Below, piece by piece: positions 42,989-49,456 of a stretch of DNA of 64,000 nt. The DNA lies in assembly GCF_005938105.1 (NCBI RefSeq), contig NZ_VCPE01000006.1, positions 62,001 to 126,000 on the forward strand. Reading direction: 5' to 3'. Under the pieces are notes generated by a model. That model saw only the letters and a program-made list of their open reading frames with translations, searched no databases and had not been told where the DNA came from. Position numbers and translations under genes: made by a program. The stretch is from Brucella haematophila (GTDB lineage: Bacteria > Pseudomonadota > Alphaproteobacteria > Rhizobiales > Rhizobiaceae). Numbering within the stretch: position 1 is the first letter of the stretch; each line of letters opens with the position of its first letter.

Positions 42989-43894
42989 ATGTTTCGCCTC
43001 GCTCACATCTCCGATATCCACCTTTCGCCACTGCCGCGTGTGAGATATCGCGAATTGGCCTCGAAGCGTATCACCGGTTATATCAACTGGCTGCGCAACC
43101 GCAAGGGTGCAATGCATGGGACGGTACTCGATAAACTTGTAGCCGATATGCTGGCGCAAGCGCCCAATCACATTGCCGTCACTGGCGATCTGGTCAATCT
43201 GGCTCTCAATCTGGAAATAGATATCGCCGCCGACTGGCTGTCGAAACTGGGTAACCCGGATGACGTCTCGGTCGTGCCCGGCAATCACGATGCCTATGTT
43301 CCGGGCGCGCTCGACCGGTCCTGCCGCAAATGGGAACCGTGGATGCGAGGCGATGGCATCGACAACAAGGGCAAGCGCCCGCAGTTTCCGTATATGCGTG
43401 TGCGCGATGATGTTGCGATGATCGGCGTTTCGTCAGCCCGCGCCACGGCACCTTTCATGGCAAGCGGCGACTTCCGCTCCGCGCAAGCCAAACGACTCGC
43501 CGCCACACTTGATGAGGCAGGTGCACGTGGGCTTTTCCGGGTGGTGATGATCCATCATCCGCCGATCCACGGTGCAACGCCGACGCACAAGCGGCTTTAT
43601 GGCATCCGCCGTTTTCAAAAGGTCATCCGCAAGCATGGCGCGGAGCTGGTCATTCACGGCCACACGCATCTGGCGACGAAATATGAAATCGATGGACCGA
43701 ACGGCAACGTGCCGGTGATCTGCGTCCCGTCGGCCAGCCAGAACTATGGCGGCCACAAGCCGCCTGCCCGCTACAATCTCTTCAACATCGACCGTAAGCC
43801 GGATGGCGGCTGGCATTGCCTGTGGGAACAGCACGGCATCGAAGATGCAAGCGAGCGCATTTTCAAGATATCCGAGCAGGAACTGTACAAATGA
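42989..43894 (+). CDS. Calcineurin-like metallophosphoesterase
   Basis: A 301-residue phosphoesterase with all five dinuclear-metal blocks in order: ISDIHLS, VTGDLVN, VPGNHD, MIHHPP and HGHTH. It resembles the CpdA/ICC group that includes cAMP phosphodiesterases, but many members act on other phosphodiesters. No signal peptide, so cytoplasmic. Convergent with leuA, with a shared terminator. Confidence 0.9.
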   Translation: MFRLAHISDIHLSPLPRVRYRELASKRITGYINWLRNRKGAMHGTVLDKLVADMLAQAPNHIAVTGDLVNLALNLEIDIAADWLSKLGNPDDVSVVPGNHDAYVPGALDRSCRKWEPWMRGDGIDNKGKRPQFPYMRVRDDVAMIGVSSARATAPFMASGDFRSAQAKRLAATLDEAGARGLFRVVMIHHPPIHGATPTHKRLYGIRRFQKVIRKHGAELVIHGHTHLATKYEIDGPNGNVPVICVPSASQNYGGHKPPARYNLFNIDRKPDGGWHCLWEQHGIEDASERIFKISEQELYK

Positions 43895-43924
43895 AAAAGG
43901 CGGCACAGCGTGCCGCCTTTTTTG
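43894..43924. terminator. Bidirectional terminator between phosphoesterase and leuA
   Basis: AAAGGCGGCA pairs with TGCCGCCTTT around CAGCG. Plus strand ends in a T-run (ccttttttgtt) and minus strand in cctttttcat. Confidence 0.93.
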
Positions 43925-43941
43925 TTCAATAGTCTGCGCAA

Positions 43942-45663
43942 TTACTGACCGATCACCCGGTTGGCCGCCGATACGATGGCTTCCAGCGATGCGCTGACGA
44001 TATTGTCGTTGATGCCGGCACCGAACAGCTTGCCGCCCGGATGCGCCATTTCAACATAGGAAATAGCCGATGCATCCGAACCCTGCTGGAGCGAATGTTC
44101 GGAATAATCCACGACCGACATCTTCACGCCGAGATATTTGGACAGCGCGTCAACAAAGCCGTCAATCGGACCGGTACCCTTGCCTTCGATATTCTTGGTC
44201 ACACCGTTATCGGTGATTTCGGCGGTGAGAATGCGGCGACCCTTCTGTTCTGGATCCGGGATGGTGTGGTGATCCACGAACTTGATGCGGGCATTCGGCT
44301 GCGTCACATAGAGCTTCTGGAACTCTTCGTGAATGCGCTTGGACGGCAATTCCTTGCCTTCGTCGTCGGTGATCTGCTGGATGATTTCGCGGAACTCGAC
44401 CTGCAGATTGCGCGGCAGGTTCAAGCCGTAATCGGCCTGCAGGATATAGGCGATGCCGCCCTTGCCCGACTGCGAATTGATGCGGATGATCGCTTCGTAG
44501 GAGCGGCCAACGTCCTGCGGGTCAATCGGCAGATAAGGCACTTCCCAAACCGGCGAATTGGCCGACTTGCGCGCCTTCATCCCCTTGTTGATCGCATCCT
44601 GATGCGAGCCGGAGAAAGCGGTATAGACCAGCTCGCCGACATAGGGGTGACGCTCTGCGATCTTCAGCTGGTTCGAATATTCATAGACATCCTTCATGCG
44701 ATTGATGTCCGTGCAATCCAGCTCGGGATCGATGCCCTGCGTGTACATGTTCAGCGCCAGCGTCACCACGTCCACATTGCCGGTGCGTTCGCCATTGCCA
44801 AACAAGGTGCCTTCTACACGATCGGCACCGGCCATCAGGCCCAGTTCCGTCGCAGCGATGCCCGTACCGCGGTCATTATGCGGGTGCAACGAAATGATCA
44901 GGTTTTCGCGATTGTCGAGATTGCGGCACATCCATTCGATCTGGTCGGCATAGACATTCGGCGTGTTCATTTCCACCGTAGACGGCAGATTGACGATCAG
45001 CTTGTTGTCCGCCGTCGGCTTCACGATCTCGATGACCGCATTGCAGATTTCCAGCGCCACATCCAGCTCGGTGCCGGTAAAGCTTTCCGGCGAATACTGG
45101 AAGCGATAGCCGCCACCTGCTTTGGCTGCCATATCCATGATCATCTTGGCCGCATCGGTCGCGATCTGCTTGATCCCGCCAACATCCTTGGCGAAAACCA
45201 CGCGGCGCTGCAATTCACTGGTGGAATTGTAGAAGTGGATGATCGGCGTCTTTGCGCCTTCCAAAGCTTCGAACGTACGGGTGATCAGTTCAGGACGGCA
45301 CTGCACCAGCACCTGCAAATCCAGCTCGTCCGGCACATTGCCCTGTTCAATCGCCCAGCGACAGAAGTCGAAATCCGTCTGCGAGGCCGACGGGAAACCA
45401 ATTTCGATTTCCGGGAAACCCATATCGACCAGCAAGCGGAACATGCGCTCCTTGCGGTCGTGACCCATCGGGTCGATCAAAGCCTGATTGCCGTCGCGCA
45501 GATCGACCGAGCACCATATCGGTGCCTTTTCGATGCGCTTGGATGGCCAGGTGCGGTCATCGAGCTTGGGAGCCGGGAATGGCGAATATTTGGTGGCTGC
45601 ATCCCGCATGCCTTTACGGTCGGCGTCGGCGACGGATTGCGGCGTAATAACGGACTGGTTCAT
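43942..45663 (-). CDS. leuA: 2-isopropylmalate synthase
   Basis: A 573-residue enzyme for the first committed step of leucine synthesis (acetyl-CoA + 2-oxoisovalerate). The TIM barrel has the metal/substrate motif SVDLRDGNQALIDPM and the metal-binding LHPHNDRGTGIAATE. The C-terminal LeuA dimer domain (about 440-573) is the leucine-feedback domain. It is the long type 2 form also found in Actinobacteria. It is preceded by a Leu-rich leader peptide and attenuator, listed separately. Confidence 0.97.
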   Translation of the reverse strand: MNQSVITPQSVADADRKGMRDAATKYSPFPAPKLDDRTWPSKRIEKAPIWCSVDLRDGNQALIDPMGHDRKERMFRLLVDMGFPEIEIGFPSASQTDFDFCRWAIEQGNVPDELDLQVLVQCRPELITRTFEALEGAKTPIIHFYNSTSELQRRVVFAKDVGGIKQIATDAAKMIMDMAAKAGGGYRFQYSPESFTGTELDVALEICNAVIEIVKPTADNKLIVNLPSTVEMNTPNVYADQIEWMCRNLDNRENLIISLHPHNDRGTGIAATELGLMAGADRVEGTLFGNGERTGNVDVVTLALNMYTQGIDPELDCTDINRMKDVYEYSNQLKIAERHPYVGELVYTAFSGSHQDAINKGMKARKSANSPVWEVPYLPIDPQDVGRSYEAIIRINSQSGKGGIAYILQADYGLNLPRNLQVEFREIIQQITDDEGKELPSKRIHEEFQKLYVTQPNARIKFVDHHTIPDPEQKGRRILTAEITDNGVTKNIEGKGTGPIDGFVDALSKYLGVKMSVVDYSEHSLQQGSDASAISYVEMAHPGGKLFGAGINDNIVSASLEAIVSAANRVIGQ

Positions 45664-45743
45664 TTCTCGTTTCCTCCCGGCTTCTGGACGGCATTAAAGC
45701 CCGTCAAGCACGGATATTCATGATCGATTATAAGGGTTTTCTG

Positions 45744-45792
45744 AAAAGGAGCACAGGCCAGCGGGACCGTTTTCGACCGCCGGACGCTCCTT
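45744..45792 (-). terminator. leuA attenuator: terminator hairpin with competing antiterminator
   Basis: On the minus strand AAGGAGC and GTCCGGCGG pair with CCGCTGGCC and GCTCCTT (one mismatch, one wobble, TGT bulge), followed by TTTTC. The inner 5' arm CCGGCGGTC (45775-45783) can instead pair with GATCGCCGG (45801-45809), forming an antiterminator. That segment in turn can pair with CTCGGC (45819-45824) within the Leu-codon region. The three alternatives are the standard attenuator logic. Confidence 0.72.
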
Positions 45793-45914
45793 CAACGAGC
45801 CCGGCGATCGCCGCTAAGGCCGAGGGTAAGAAGCGAGTTGAGAACGCAAACATCGACGCGCGCGCCAGTGGCGGCAGCCGAATGTCCCAGAGATGTTGCG
45901 TTCTTCGTCATCAT
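45792..45914 (-). CDS. Candidate leuA leader peptide (40 residues, Leu-rich end)
   Basis: The 40-codon frame ends ...LNSLLTLGLSGDRRAR and stops at the foot of the terminator hairpin. Codons 25-33 contain five Leu codons (CTC, CTT, CTT, CTC, CTT) in nine, as expected for a ribosome-stalling sensor of Leu-tRNA. The start ATG at 45914 would be the first base of the transcript if the promoter at 45922-45950 is used, so it may be leaderless; no Shine-Dalgarno is present. It is followed after 128 bases by leuA on the same strand. Confidence 0.68.
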   Translation of the reverse strand: MMTKNATSLGHSAAATGARVDVCVLNSLLTLGLSGDRRAR

Positions 45915-45921
45915 GGCCAAG

Positions 45922-45950
45922 CTTTTACACGCGCGATTTGACCGATGCAA
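45922..45950 (-). promoter_or_regulatory. Candidate promoter of the leuA leader
   Basis: Minus-strand TTGCAT (45945-45950) and TAAAAG (45922-45927) are 17 bases apart. The leader ATG begins after seven further bases. Confidence 0.55.
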
Positions 45951-45992
45951 GATGCATTTACGCCAGTTGCTTCGGTCAGCACGGTATTTCAA

Positions 45993-46901
45993 TCAGGCAA
46001 ATGGCACAGCACTTGTACCCAAAGGCAATTTCGCCTCGTCTTCCGGTTCAACATGGATGACGACGCGGGCGCTGCCGATCTGTTCTTTCAGCGCATCTTC
46101 AATGCGGTCGCAGATCACATGCGCATCGCCGACGCTCATTTCGGCTGCCACAACCAGATGAAACTCGATGAAGGTGACGCGCCCGGCAATGCGGGTTTTC
46201 AGGTCGTGCACCTCAATGGCGCCTGCTGCATTGGACGAAATGACATCGCGAATGCGCATTTCCTCGGCAGGCTCGACGCCGATATCCATCAAGCCCTGCA
46301 CCGACGAGTTGATCACGTGCCAGCCCTGCCACAGAATATTCAGCGCCACGACAATAGCGAGCAGCGGATCGAGGATTGCCCAGCCAGTAACGACAGCACC
46401 CACCAGACCGACCAGCACGCCCAGCGACGTAAATACGTCGGTCATGATGTGCTTGCCGTCGGCTTCCAGCGCCGGAGACCGTGCCGCGCGCCCGGTACGG
46501 ATCAGGAGCGTAGCCCAGACGCCATTGATGACAGCGGCCACCGTATTGATGCCGAGGCCAAGCCATGGTTCTTCAAGCTGGCGCGGGGTCTGCAAGGCAA
46601 ACCAAGCCTCGCGGAAGATCAGCAGCGCCGCGACAGTAATCAGCACGCCTTCGACAACGGCCGAGATATATTCCGCCTTGTGATGACCGAACGGGTGATT
46701 TTCATCGGCGGGCTTATAGCTCACGCTGATCGCCCACCAGGCGCCCACTGCCGCGATGACATTGACGATGGATTCGAGCGCATCGGAATAGAGCGCTACG
46801 GAGCCGGTGAGCATATAAGCCACGTATTTCAGCCCCATCACCCCAAAGGCAATGGGAATCGACCATGCGGCCAGCCGCCGAACTCTTGCACTCGCGTCCA
46901 T
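45993..46901 (-). CDS. Cation diffusion facilitator family transporter
   Basis: A 302-residue inner-membrane antiporter exporting divalent metal ions. Six hydrophobic segments occupy residues about 10-210, with TM2 motif YSDALESIVN and TM5 motif HIMTDVFTS (HxxxD metal site). The cytoplasmic C-terminal ferredoxin-like domain has EVHDLKTRIAG and HVICDRIEDALK. The TM2 site lacks the second Asp of Zn-type YiiP, so metal choice (Zn, Fe, Mn) is open. Confidence 0.9.
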   Translation of the reverse strand: MDASARVRRLAAWSIPIAFGVMGLKYVAYMLTGSVALYSDALESIVNVIAAVGAWWAISVSYKPADENHPFGHHKAEYISAVVEGVLITVAALLIFREAWFALQTPRQLEEPWLGLGINTVAAVINGVWATLLIRTGRAARSPALEADGKHIMTDVFTSLGVLVGLVGAVVTGWAILDPLLAIVVALNILWQGWHVINSSVQGLMDIGVEPAEEMRIRDVISSNAAGAIEVHDLKTRIAGRVTFIEFHLVVAAEMSVGDAHVICDRIEDALKEQIGSARVVIHVEPEDEAKLPLGTSAVPFA

Positions 46902-47257
46902 GACGAACCTTTGATTTATCTAATTACTGCCCGAGACAGGCCCAAAAACCGGACCTTGATCAATTCAGGCTCATGCATATTGGGCTCATGCGCACCGGCT
47001 TTGGCCTGAAATAAGATTTCAGAGCCGGTCAGTCCTATGCAACTGCATTTTTGAAACCGCTCTATACCCCAGAACAATCGAAGTTCGTACCCCTGTTTTT
47101 TCAGTTATCGCATTTAATTTTTCCTGCAAATGCAAGGCATTACAGTTGCAAATGCGTTGCCAGAGCAAGCAGTGAAAACGTGCAGCCGAAATCCCAAAAC
47201 AAAACCGGCCGCAGGGTGACTGCGACCGGCTGGATATTAACGCGATGAAGCGCCTTT
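46902..47257. other. 356-base intergenic stretch between the CDF gene and trpE(G)
   Basis: It holds the trpE(G) terminator at 47199-47231 and must hold the CDF promoter. Two exact copies of TGCAAATGC (47125-47133 and 47147-47155) lie 22 bases apart, close to two helical turns. No coding frame is convincing. Confidence 0.45.
47199..47231 (-). terminator. Intrinsic terminator of trpE(G)
   Basis: On the minus strand CCGGTCGCAG pairs with CTGCGGCCGG (one G-U), followed by TTTTGTTTT. Confidence 0.9.
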
Positions 47258-49456
47258 TCAGTAGTTGCTGCGGCGCGCTTTTTTGTGTTTGCCCGCCAGA
47301 TGCGTCACCACATTCTCGATCATCCGCATACCGGCATTATGACCGAGCGTCATGATCGATTCTGGGTGGAACTGAACAGCCGCCACCGGCTCCTTCTTAT
47401 GTTCGAAAGCCATGATCACACCGTCTTCGGTTTCCGCCGTGACGAGGAAATCATCCGGCAGACGTTCCGGATCGGCAAAGATCGAATGGTAGCGTCCAAC
47501 GGTCACTTCCTTCGGCAGACCGGAGAAAATGCGTTCCGGCTTCGACACGCGAATGCGCGACGGCTTGCCGTGCATCGGAATGCGCAACTGGCGCAACGTG
47601 CCGCCATAGGCTTCTGCCAGAGCCTGAAGGCCGAGACAGACGCCGAAGATCGGCAGTTCGCGCTTGCGCGCCTTGTCGATGGTTGCCTTGCAGTCGAAAT
47701 CCTGCGGCGAACCTGGCCCCGGCGAAAGCACCACGAGATCAGGATTGACGCGGTCGAAAATATCGTCGGCAACCGGCGAGCGCACCGTCGAAACCGTTGC
47801 ACCCGTCTGGCGGAAATAATTGGCCAGCGTATGCACGAAGGAATCTTCGTGATCCACGAGCAGGACCGAGATACCCTCGCCCACCTTGGCGGCCACACGT
47901 TCTTCAGCAACATGATTGCTCTTCTGCGCCTCACGCACAGCCGCGATCATCGCCGAAGCCTTCAGCTCGGTTTCCGCCTCTTCCTCTTCCGGGTTGGAAT
48001 CAAACAGCAGCGTTGCACCGGCGCGGATTTCAGCCACGCCATCCTTGATGCGGATAGTGCGCAGGGTGAGACCTGTATTCATGTCGCCGTTGAAATGCAT
48101 CATGCCGATGGCGCCGCCATACCATGCACGCGGGCTGCGCTCGTTTTCCTCAAGGAAACGCATCGCCCACAATTTCGGCGCGCCGGTCACCGTCACAGCC
48201 CATGCATGGCTGAGGAAACCATCGAAAGCATCCATGCCGTCGCGCAGGCGACCTTCAATGTGATCGACCGTATGGATCAGGCGCGAATACATTTCGATCT
48301 GGCGGCGACCGATCACCCGCACCGAACCCGGCTCGCAGACCCGGCTCTTGTCGTTGCGGTCGACATCCGAACACATGGTCAGTTCGGATTCGTCCTTCTT
48401 GGAATTGAGCAGCTTCAGGATCTGCTCCGAATCCGAAATCGCATCCTCGCCGCGCTTGATCGTGCCCGAGATCGGGCAGGTTTCGATGCGGCGGCCATTG
48501 ACGCGCACGAACATTTCCGGCGATGCGCCAACCAGATATTCGTTCTCGCCCAGATTGATGAAGAAGGAATATGGCGACGGGTTGATCGTCTTCAGGCGAC
48601 GGAAGATTTCCGACGGTGCGGTGTGGCAACGCTCATAGAAGGTCTGACCCGGCACGACCTCGAACAGATCGCCGCGCTTGAAGCTATCCTTGGCGCGCTC
48701 GACCAGCTTGGCATATTCGCCCGGATTATGATCGCCACGCGGCAATGTACGTTCCGAAGGCTTGAACGCCTCGGCAGGCGTTGCCCGTGCAAGACCATGC
48801 GTCGAGGAACCGCCGCAGGTGAATTCATAACGATCGACCCAGGCGCGTGCTGCATAGTGGTCGGCGACGAAGATCTCGTCGGGAATGAACAGCACCAGAT
48901 CGCGCTGGGTTTCCGGGCGCTTGAGCTTGTACTGGATCGGGTCAAACTGGAACGCCAGATCGTAACCGAAGGCACCGTAAAGGCCGAGATTGGCATCTTC
49001 TTCCGAGAAGAACAGCCCGACAATGGCGCGCAGCACCGTGAACACCGAAGGCATGCGCGAACGCTCTTCTTCAGTAAACGTGCCAGTCGGCTCCGCAATG
49101 GTCAGCTCGATGCAGTCTTGCGTGGACGTATCCACCGTCACTTCGGCCAAGGCCTGCACGGTATCGAGAATGGGGCGCAGCAGGATGACGCCACGGGCGT
49201 TCAGGGCTTCGATGCGCATCGTGCGCTGGCGCGAGGTGATCACCACCGGCGGATCGACGATTGCCGTATCCCATCGCGTATAACGGCCCGGATATTCGTA
49301 GTTGGACGAGAACACCGCACCGCGTCTTTCATTGAGCACATCGATATAGGTTTCGATGGCGCCCTTATACGCAGTGAGATGGCGCACGCGCTCGACGACA
49401 ATGCCGCCAGCCGTTTCGTGCTGAAATATCTCGCTATCCGCTATCTTCGCATTCAT
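47258..49456 (-). CDS. trpE(G): Fused anthranilate synthase TrpE(G)
   Basis: A 732-residue single-chain enzyme for chorismate to anthranilate. The TrpE part (to about 510) has [36 protein letters not shown] (cut here for length), [12 protein letters not shown] and [13 protein letters not shown]. The TrpG part (about 530-732) has SPGPGSP, the nucleophile GVCLGLQ and the His-Glu pair in QFHPES. This fusion is characteristic of rhizobia and relatives. Controlled by the trpL attenuator upstream. Confidence 0.98.

What the first reader, a model, noticed from the sequence alone, without database searches (positions are those of the whole stretch)
45744..45950. Transcription attenuator of leuA with a Leu-rich, probably leaderless, leader peptide
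Upstream of leuA lies a 40-codon frame with five Leu codons in nine near its end. Its stop falls at the foot of a GC-rich hairpin with a T-tail. GATCGCCGG (minus strand) can pair with CCGGCGGTC of the terminator arm, and CTCGGC in the Leu-codon region can pair with GCCGGG in that same segment. So three mutually exclusive structures exist in the right order. Promoter-like hexamers with 17-base spacing put +1 at the leader ATG, as for trpL. I do not recall a described leuA leader of this form in Brucellaceae.
Basis: partly seen in the sequence, partly recalled or inferred. Interest (0 to 1): 0.8.

Follow-up and report, generated by a model that had tools for sequence, protein, structure and literature searches.

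The report
Leucine-sensing RNA leader before leuA
The stretch in front of a leucine-making gene holds a tiny leucine-rich reading frame followed by RNA that could fold in competing ways, one of them a pseudoknot, most likely as a leucine sensor, and it resembles a poorly understood element described in a distant group of bacteria.

Summary
The leader is real. A 40-codon, probably leaderless ORF (45914-45792, minus strand) with five Leu in nine codons precedes leuA. Leu codons, promoter spacing and start position recur upstream of leuA in Rhizobiaceae, Brucellaceae and allies, while residues further upstream drift. Helix 2:3 (S1) covaries strongly. Hairpin 3:4 is a real competitor in Rhizobiales. 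The U-tract is not conserved: a run of 4 or more T in 4 of 71 loci. Stem 1:2 shows no covariation.

The architecture resembles the actinobacterial LEU element, which my searches found only in Actinobacteria. No Rfam family matches. By eye, 11 of 14 other alphaproteobacterial loci carry two such leaders; in other families the second leader's stop overlaps the leuA start (9 of 10). Leucine-responsive leader: well supported. Intrinsic-terminator attenuation: not supported. The output step is open. New variant of a known kind.

The parts
45922..45950 (-). promoter-like hexamers TTGCAT - 17 nt - TAAAAG, ending 7 nt before the leader ATG
   Evidence: best site before an in-frame leader ATG has TTG at -35 in 69 of 72 loci and a 17-nt spacer in 56 of 72; 42 of 72 reach p<=0.05 against shuffles, the window itself does not (0.23); one search found no consensus promoter
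45792..45914 (-). leader peptide ORF, 40 codons, no Shine-Dalgarno (probably leaderless)
   Evidence: SD-like motif before the chosen ATG in 1 of 72 loci
45816..45842 (-). leucine codon cluster CTC AAC TCG CTT CTT ACC CTC GGC CTT
   Evidence: Leu at codons -4 and -2 in 68 of 68 distinct loci (codon 0 was the anchor); CTTA of the last codon invariant in 48 of 48 aligned rows
45799..45810 (-).
   Evidence: 12 pairs with 45785-45774, 98.9% of cells paired in A2, 6 pairs with both-sided changes, 0 of 500 shuffles
45774..45785 (-).
45786..45792 (-). S2 5' strand AAGGAGC, touching the leader stop and lying in the S1 loop
   Evidence: second pair beyond GGAGC covaries (52 of 57 paired, shuffled mean 41.7, 0 of 5000; same with an unchosen 3' site, 48 of 53, 0 of 5000); helix 2. 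Pairs further out are not reliably above shuffles
45746..45752 (-).
45748..45790 (-). competing extended 3:4 hairpin
   Evidence: fold energy mean z -1.38 over 67 loci, window only -0.40; where segment 3 has T for C (5 of 67 loci) the predicted partner is A
43942..45663 (-). leuA, 2-isopropylmalate synthase, 573 aa, long type (TIGR00970)

Best explanation
A leucine-responsive, ribosome-read 5' leader of leuA. Transcription starts at or next to the AUG of a leaderless 40-codon ORF (inferred from promoter geometry). Ribosomes short of Leu-tRNA stall in the Leu codon cluster and leave segment 2 free, so S1 (2:3) forms, possibly locked by S2 into an H-type pseudoknot: the ON state. With enough leucine the ribosome moves to the last CTT codon or the stop, covers segment 2, and the competing 3:4 hairpin forms: the OFF state. 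Shown by conservation: leader, Leu codons, S1, S2, and the 3:4 alternative in Rhizobiales. Inferred: that S1 and S2 coexist, which state is ON, and the output. I think the output is most likely early loss of transcription without a classical U-tract (pausing or Rho), because the leader keeps a fixed distance from the promoter; control of leuA translation is the close second.
For: Leader conserved: an exact core pattern, drawn from these loci, lies upstream of 69 of 80 leuA loci. Covariation of S1 and S2. 3:4 competitor. Pairing model with ribosome edges (pseudoknots not modelled): in the window P(2:3) is 0.54 with the A site at Leu -4, 0.24 at Leu -2, 0.02 at the last CTT and 0.00 at the stop. 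Specificity: one R1 match in the own genome at E<=0.01; 15 of 17 matches in 289 class genomes lie before leuA, and 10 of 10 sampled same-family genomes with a TIGR00970 leuA have it. Fixed spacing: the chosen start lies 117-128 nt before GGAG in 66 of 72 loci.
Against: Over 71 loci the pseudoknot-free model favours 3:4 on average at every ribosome position; 2:3 is favoured in 23 of 71 with the ribosome at Leu -2 (mean P 0.34 versus 0.59). Of five loci printed there, L006, L017 and L042 favour 3:4 throughout, so the switch needs S2 or co-transcriptional kinetics. S2 is equally the foot of 3:4, so its covariation does not by itself show a pseudoknot. The RNAalifold consensus pairs the GG of GGAGC with segment 2 instead, an extension of S1 that competes with S2. 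In 19 distant loci the S1-to-S2 gap is 0-11 nt (5 or less in 10) beside an S1 of 11-14 pairs: no room for 3:4, and often too short, as I recall loop limits, for a full pseudoknot. A swap test for S2 there is moderate (28 of 5000). No expression data. Published mutants of the Streptomyces leuA leader were said to be inconsistent with classical attenuation (passage in PMC1262725).
Confidence: 0.55

Rival explanations
1. Classical transcription attenuator: 3:4 is an intrinsic terminator with its T-tail and 2:3 the antiterminator.
For: The window and two nearly identical relatives have TTTT after the stem (L001, L005); 2:3 and 3:4 compete.
Against: A T run of 4 or more within 10 nt follows in 4 of 71 loci: the window, L001, L005 and L025; the next relatives L002-L004 have TTTCC, TTACA and TTTCT after GCTCC. 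The trpL leader in the same window has TTTTTGTTT. No terminator by scan. 1:2 not conserved by covariation.
Confidence: 0.15
2. Translational control: the S1/S2 or 3:4 state alters access to, or re-initiation at, the leuA ribosome site rather than transcription.
For: In three other families of the phylum a T run of 5-9 lies between two such leaders (10 of 10 two-leader loci), and the second leader, with an SD-like motif in 9 of 10, ends in the leuA start codon (ATGTTGA) in 9 of 10. Actinobacterial LEU elements are described as pairing with the leuA SD and lacking terminators (passages).
Against: In the window leuA starts 127 nt after S2 begins, and complementarity of the Leu run to the leuA SD is only slightly better than controls (mean z -0.60 against shuffles; mean -14.44 versus -14.12 kcal/mol for swapped loci, 65 loci). 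The leader position is fixed to the promoter, as expected of co-transcriptional timing.
Confidence: 0.3
3. The S1/S2 fold is a binding site for a regulatory protein and the leader ORF is secondary (the suggestion made for the actinobacterial element).
For: S1/S2 are better conserved than most of the leader peptide; proposed for Actinobacteria in PMC1262725.
Against: The protein proposed there is said to be absent outside Actinobacteria (not tested here). Leu at codons -4 and -2 is invariant (68 of 68). Paired bases change with compensation, which is not typical of a protein site.
Confidence: 0.08

Closest known systems
Actinobacterial LEU element upstream of leuA (Seliverstov et al. 2005, PMC1262725, passages read)
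   Same: Leader ORF with a Leu codon run directly followed by a hairpin that may be part of a pseudoknot; long-type leuA; no terminator; leaderless in S. lividans (MRFGLLLLSCRGEGL, passage in PMC8079986). Four actinobacterial loci fetched here (L195-L198) show an S1 of 11-14 pairs as scored and possible S2 partners, the latter not significant singly (p 0.05-0.41).
   Different: No detectable sequence match (R1 does not hit L195-L198 at E<=0.05). Leu-run:SD base stem not clearly present in Rhizobiales. Longer leader, a 3:4 competitor, and tandem copies in other Alphaproteobacteria (by eye).
Enterobacterial leu operon attenuator (recalled; Shewanella version in PMC2659441, passages read)
   Same: Leu-rich leader ORF and competing stems upstream of leuA.
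   Different: There a terminator, an antiterminator and an anti-antiterminator are described; here neither the U-tract nor covariation of 1:2 is found. No Rfam leader family matches the window.
trpL leader of the same genome and of Sinorhizobium (PMC10117765, passages read)
   Same: Leader ORF with regulatory codons; leaderless in Sinorhizobium.
   Different: trpL in the window has a canonical T-rich tail; leuA does not.

Membership tests
Ribosome-mediated transcription attenuator with intrinsic terminator | Leader ORF with regulatory codons of the end product | tested here: met
Ribosome-mediated transcription attenuator with intrinsic terminator | Mutually exclusive antiterminator (2:3) and 3:4 stems | tested here: met
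   2:3 covaries; 3:4 mean z -1.38 over 67 loci, window -0.40, and T:A partners in 5 of 5 variant loci; in 19 distant loci 3:4 has no room
Ribosome-mediated transcription attenuator with intrinsic terminator | U-tract after the 3:4 stem | tested here: not met
   T run of 4 or more in 4 of 71 loci, the window among them
Ribosome-mediated transcription attenuator with intrinsic terminator | Anti-antiterminator 1:2 | tested here: not met
   no covariation: 88.9% of cells paired versus 88.7% shuffled, 212 of 500; pairing itself is better than with slid partners
Ribosome-mediated transcription attenuator with intrinsic terminator | Leucine-dependent readthrough | not testable with these tools
   no expression data
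LEU element (Actinobacteria) | Leader ORF with Leu run upstream of long-type leuA | tested here: met
LEU element (Actinobacteria) | Pseudoknot right after the Leu run | tested here: inconclusive
   S1 and S2 each conserved and topologically a pseudoknot, with a gap of 14-33 nt in 73 Rhizobiales-type loci; but S2 also belongs to 3:4, RNAalifold extends S1 into it, and the gap is 5 nt or less in 10 of 19 distant loci
LEU element (Actinobacteria) | Base stem of Leu run with the leuA SD | tested here: inconclusive
   mean z -0.60 against shuffled SDs; own -14.44 versus swapped -14.12 kcal/mol, 65 loci
LEU element (Actinobacteria) | Sequence similarity to actinobacterial elements | tested here: not met
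   no R1 match at E<=0.05 in L195-L198
Any Rfam 15 family | Match to a curated covariance model | tested here: not met
   window 43000-48000 and 38 loci scanned: no match on a leuA leader element; a few matches elsewhere

The most novel reading that the evidence does not exclude
LEU-type leaders are an ancient leucine sensor inherited together with the long-type leuA across Pseudomonadota and Actinobacteria. Ancestrally there were two leaders in series, the first terminating transcription and the second gating leuA translation; Rhizobiaceae and Brucellaceae lost the first, and the surviving stage acquired its own leaderless promoter and a 3:4 competitor.
Probability: 0.28. Interest if true: 0.78.

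Novelty: new variant of a known kind. Interest (0 to 1): 0.55.

Why it matters
How the actinobacterial LEU element works has been unclear: mutants were said not to fit attenuation, and a helicase stated to be absent outside Actinobacteria was suggested as its reader (PMC1262725, passages). A similar architecture in Alphaproteobacteria would argue for the ribosome rather than that helicase as the general reader, and offers tractable hosts such as Sinorhizobium meliloti. The element has no Rfam entry among those searched. In the S. meliloti record looked at no gene is listed at the leader, though that gene table is incomplete.

Tried and rejected
Intrinsic terminator as the conserved output: rejected on T-run counts. 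Stem 1:2: no covariation. Leu-run:leuA-SD base stem: hardly better than swapped loci. S2 3' strand as an anti-SD for leuA: dropped by inspection, since the S. meliloti leuA SD region (GAAGAGAAG) has no GGAG; not tested statistically. CUUA pairing with the stop region: plausible in Rhizobiaceae but not in L091, L094, L101, L103, L105 (inspection). Complementarity of CTACGACTT to the 16S rRNA 3' region: recalled, judged coincidence, not tested. Sequence match with actinobacterial elements: none. Core pattern elsewhere in the own genome: one exact match (this site) and 12 two-mismatch matches against 12 in the backward control. Per-locus S2 significance is weak (36 of 99 below 0.05). R1 hits L096 and L104 have no leuA and are probably chance. 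An automatic count of tandem leaders (9 of 26) used a strict motif; the 11 of 14 is a reading by eye.

Limits of the counts. The pattern used requires GGNGC and most of segment 3, so their invariance there is by construction; anchors on CTTA, so codon 0 is too (one search shows CTTA invariant in 48 of 48 aligned rows). One search picks the best of several 3' sites; without that choice pair 6 still stands (48 of 53, 0 of 5000) and pair 5 weakens (103 of 5000). Relatedness is not corrected for. Rows dropped: of 82 sequences (80 loci, window, L199) 10 lack the pattern; L062 was dropped for lack of a 3' match; one search added nine Rhizobiaceae loci and kept 80 (57 distinct); searches kept 67, one search kept 65 and 63. 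Of 92 places, 89 upstream stretches were used; the window, G400 and G431 (match at a contig end) were not. One search looked at 59 of these 89.

Literature: listings only, except passages read in PMC1262725, PMC10117765, PMC4046766, PMC8079986, PMC2659441 and PMC6123439. Ten searches showed me no description of an alphaproteobacterial leuA leader. Vitreschak et al. 2004 (seen only as a citation) and later surveys (recalled) were not read and may already list leuA leaders of Rhizobiales.

Full report
What is there. On the minus strand, leuA (45663-43942) starts 127 nt after the GGAGC motif begins. The 40-codon ORF 45914-45792 ends ...VLNSLLTLGLSGDRRAR*. The close relatives (L001, L002, L004 by name) place the window in the genus Brucella in the wide sense (former Ochrobactrum). 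LeuA is of the long type; 10 of 10 sampled genomes of the window's family with a TIGR00970 match also hold the element, and one family member (G355) had no such match.

Is it more than chance? Single-sequence folding is unremarkable (z -1.08) and the consensus scans found nothing. Conservation decides. Of the 80 named leuA loci, 69 carry a core pattern upstream, and divergent ones match a covariance model built from 37 rows, seven of them divergent. Among 68 distinct leaders, codons -4 and -2 are Leu in 68 of 68, and residues -20 to -7 show pairwise identity of only 0.11-0.37. CTTA of the last Leu codon is invariant in 48 of 48 aligned rows. The chosen start codon lies 117-128 nt before GGAG in 66 of 72 loci (42 at exactly 126), with TTG at -35 in 69 and a 17-nt spacer in 56. 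An SD-like motif precedes it in 1 of 72. This supports leaderless translation; it does not prove the 5' end.

Structures. S1 (45810-45799 with 45785-45774) has 98.9% of cells paired over 37 rows, six of twelve pairs changed on both sides, none of 500 shuffles as good; a 48-row alignment agrees. The outer stem S2 (45792-45786 with 45752-45746) is 97.2% paired. The second pair beyond GGAGC switches between A-T and G-C with 52 of 57 paired (shuffled mean 41.7, 0 of 5000; 48 of 53 without choosing the site); the first is weaker (14 and 103 of 5000) and pairs further out are not reliably above shuffles. The 5' strand of S2 lies inside the S1 loop and its 3' strand after S1, so together they would be an H-type pseudoknot; the gap is 14-33 nt in 73 Rhizobiales-type loci. 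Against this, S2 is also the foot of 3:4, and RNAalifold extends S1 into the GG of GGAGC. Hairpin 3:4 is a real alternative in Rhizobiales: spacers fold better than shuffled ones (mean z -1.38, 28 of 67 below -1.64, window -0.40), and where segment 3 has T for C (5 of 67) the predicted partner is A. In 19 more distant loci the gap is 0-11 nt, so 3:4 has no room, and 5 nt or less in 10, which is short for a full pseudoknot beside 11-14 pairs of S1. S2 there is supported by a swap test (292 versus 260.1, sd 12.5; 28 of 5000), though most single loci are not significant.

The T-tail. The run that looked like a terminator tail is TTTT; two of the T's can pair with AA at the leader stop. Over 71 loci a run of 4 or more T follows in 4 (window, L001, L005, L025), and 8 have at least 4 T in 8 nt. 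The trpL leader 3.7 kb away ends in TTTTTGTTT, so this genome does use a U-tract at that attenuator.

Switch logic. With ribosome edges at successive codons and no pseudoknots, the window's 2:3 probability is 0.90 without a ribosome, then 0.54, 0.24, 0.02 and 0.00 (Leu -4, Leu -2, last CTT, stop), while 3:4 rises to 0.98-0.99. Over 71 loci the masking effect at the last CTT and stop is the same, but 3:4 is favoured on average at every position (2:3 favoured in 23, 19, 23, 3 and 0 of 71). The ON/OFF assignment is an inference that leans on S2 stabilising S1 or on co-transcriptional order.

Wider family. A search of 289 genomes of the class (stricter filters) gave 17 matches in 16 genomes; 15 of 17 lie upstream of leuA. 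In the 14 leuA loci other than the window I see, by eye, a second, upstream leader with a hairpin in 11. In 89 upstream stretches of long-type leuA from a phylum sample, CTNCGACT (Leu-Arg-Leu) occurs in 32 on the sense strand, 1 on the antisense, and 2.3 on average in Markov controls (maximum 8 in 200 rounds). Of 59 of these stretches looked at, 15 hold a second-leader pattern and 10 hold two leaders, from three families; in all 10 a T run of 5-9 lies between them, and in 9 the second leader's stop overlaps the leuA start (ATGTTGA). That suggests a terminating first stage and a translational second stage there. A LeuA tree places the single-leader Rhizobiales next to the tandem-bearing L098 and the four actinobacterial LeuA beside L075/L107 within the Pseudomonadota sample (leader classes assigned by eye; 31 of 65 inner branches well supported). 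Co-inheritance is suggested, not shown.

Known relatives. Leu-run leader, pseudoknot, no terminator and leuA are the marks of the actinobacterial LEU element (PMC1262725; S. lividans LeuL1 in PMC8079986), and four actinobacterial loci read here show a similar layout. Sequence similarity was not detected and the published Leu-run:SD stem is inconclusive here, so I call it LEU-like rather than a member. No Rfam family fits the leader. Ten paper searches showed no alphaproteobacterial leuA leader; subscription papers could not be checked.

Verdict. The leader and a leucine-sensing role are well supported by conservation. The intrinsic-terminator mechanism is not. The most likely working is ribosome position choosing between S1 (perhaps with S2 as a pseudoknot) and the 3:4 hairpin; the output step remains open. 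On recheck I lowered the main confidence from 0.60 to 0.55, the novel reading from 0.30 to 0.28 and interest from 0.56 to 0.55, because the short gaps in distant loci and the S1 extension weaken the pseudoknot.

Noticed in passing
49646-49521 (-): trpL leader before trpE(G): MNISHIRINGWWWAR*, then a GGCCGC...GCGGCC hairpin with TTTTTGTTT; a canonical attenuator used here as a contrast.
   Followed up: partly
L006, L015, L027, L038, L042, L060, L199, between S2 and leuA: By eye, a conserved block in Rhizobiaceae (such as GCATTTGYCATCGCCA, followed by a GCTATnnC- or GGTTA-like box) between S2 and the leuA SD, perhaps a second promoter downstream of the leader or another structured element.
   Followed up: no
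L168, L177, L179, L184, L187-L189, L191, L193: In three other families of the phylum the second Leu-Arg-Leu leader has an SD-like motif and its stop overlaps the leuA start codon (ATGTTGA), with a T run between the two leaders.
   Followed up: partly
L108-L110, L112, L114, L115, L117, L202: Sphingomonas and family f14 leuA leaders end LRLTRP*, LRLIRP* or LRLMRPWA*; by eye several have a long helix such as GCCCTTAGGCG:CGCCTAAGGGC instead of the S1/S2 layout.
   Followed up: no
L120-L124, L128: Unnamed family f174 (Pseudomonas by guess) has a conserved leader such as MKTAHTLILLRQHACLRLVSPRLRG* before leuA (by eye).
   Followed up: no
L014 1500-1642: Sub-threshold Rfam match to Brucella sRNA BASRCI27 (E 2.5e-4, 36.3 bits, gathering 59.8) just upstream of the leader in Mesorhizobium.
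   Followed up: no
43888-43929: Strong hairpin with A and T runs (AAAAAAGGCGGCACGCTGTGCCGCCTTTTT) just after leuA, probably a terminator usable from both sides; weak Rfam matches below the gathering scores.
   Followed up: no
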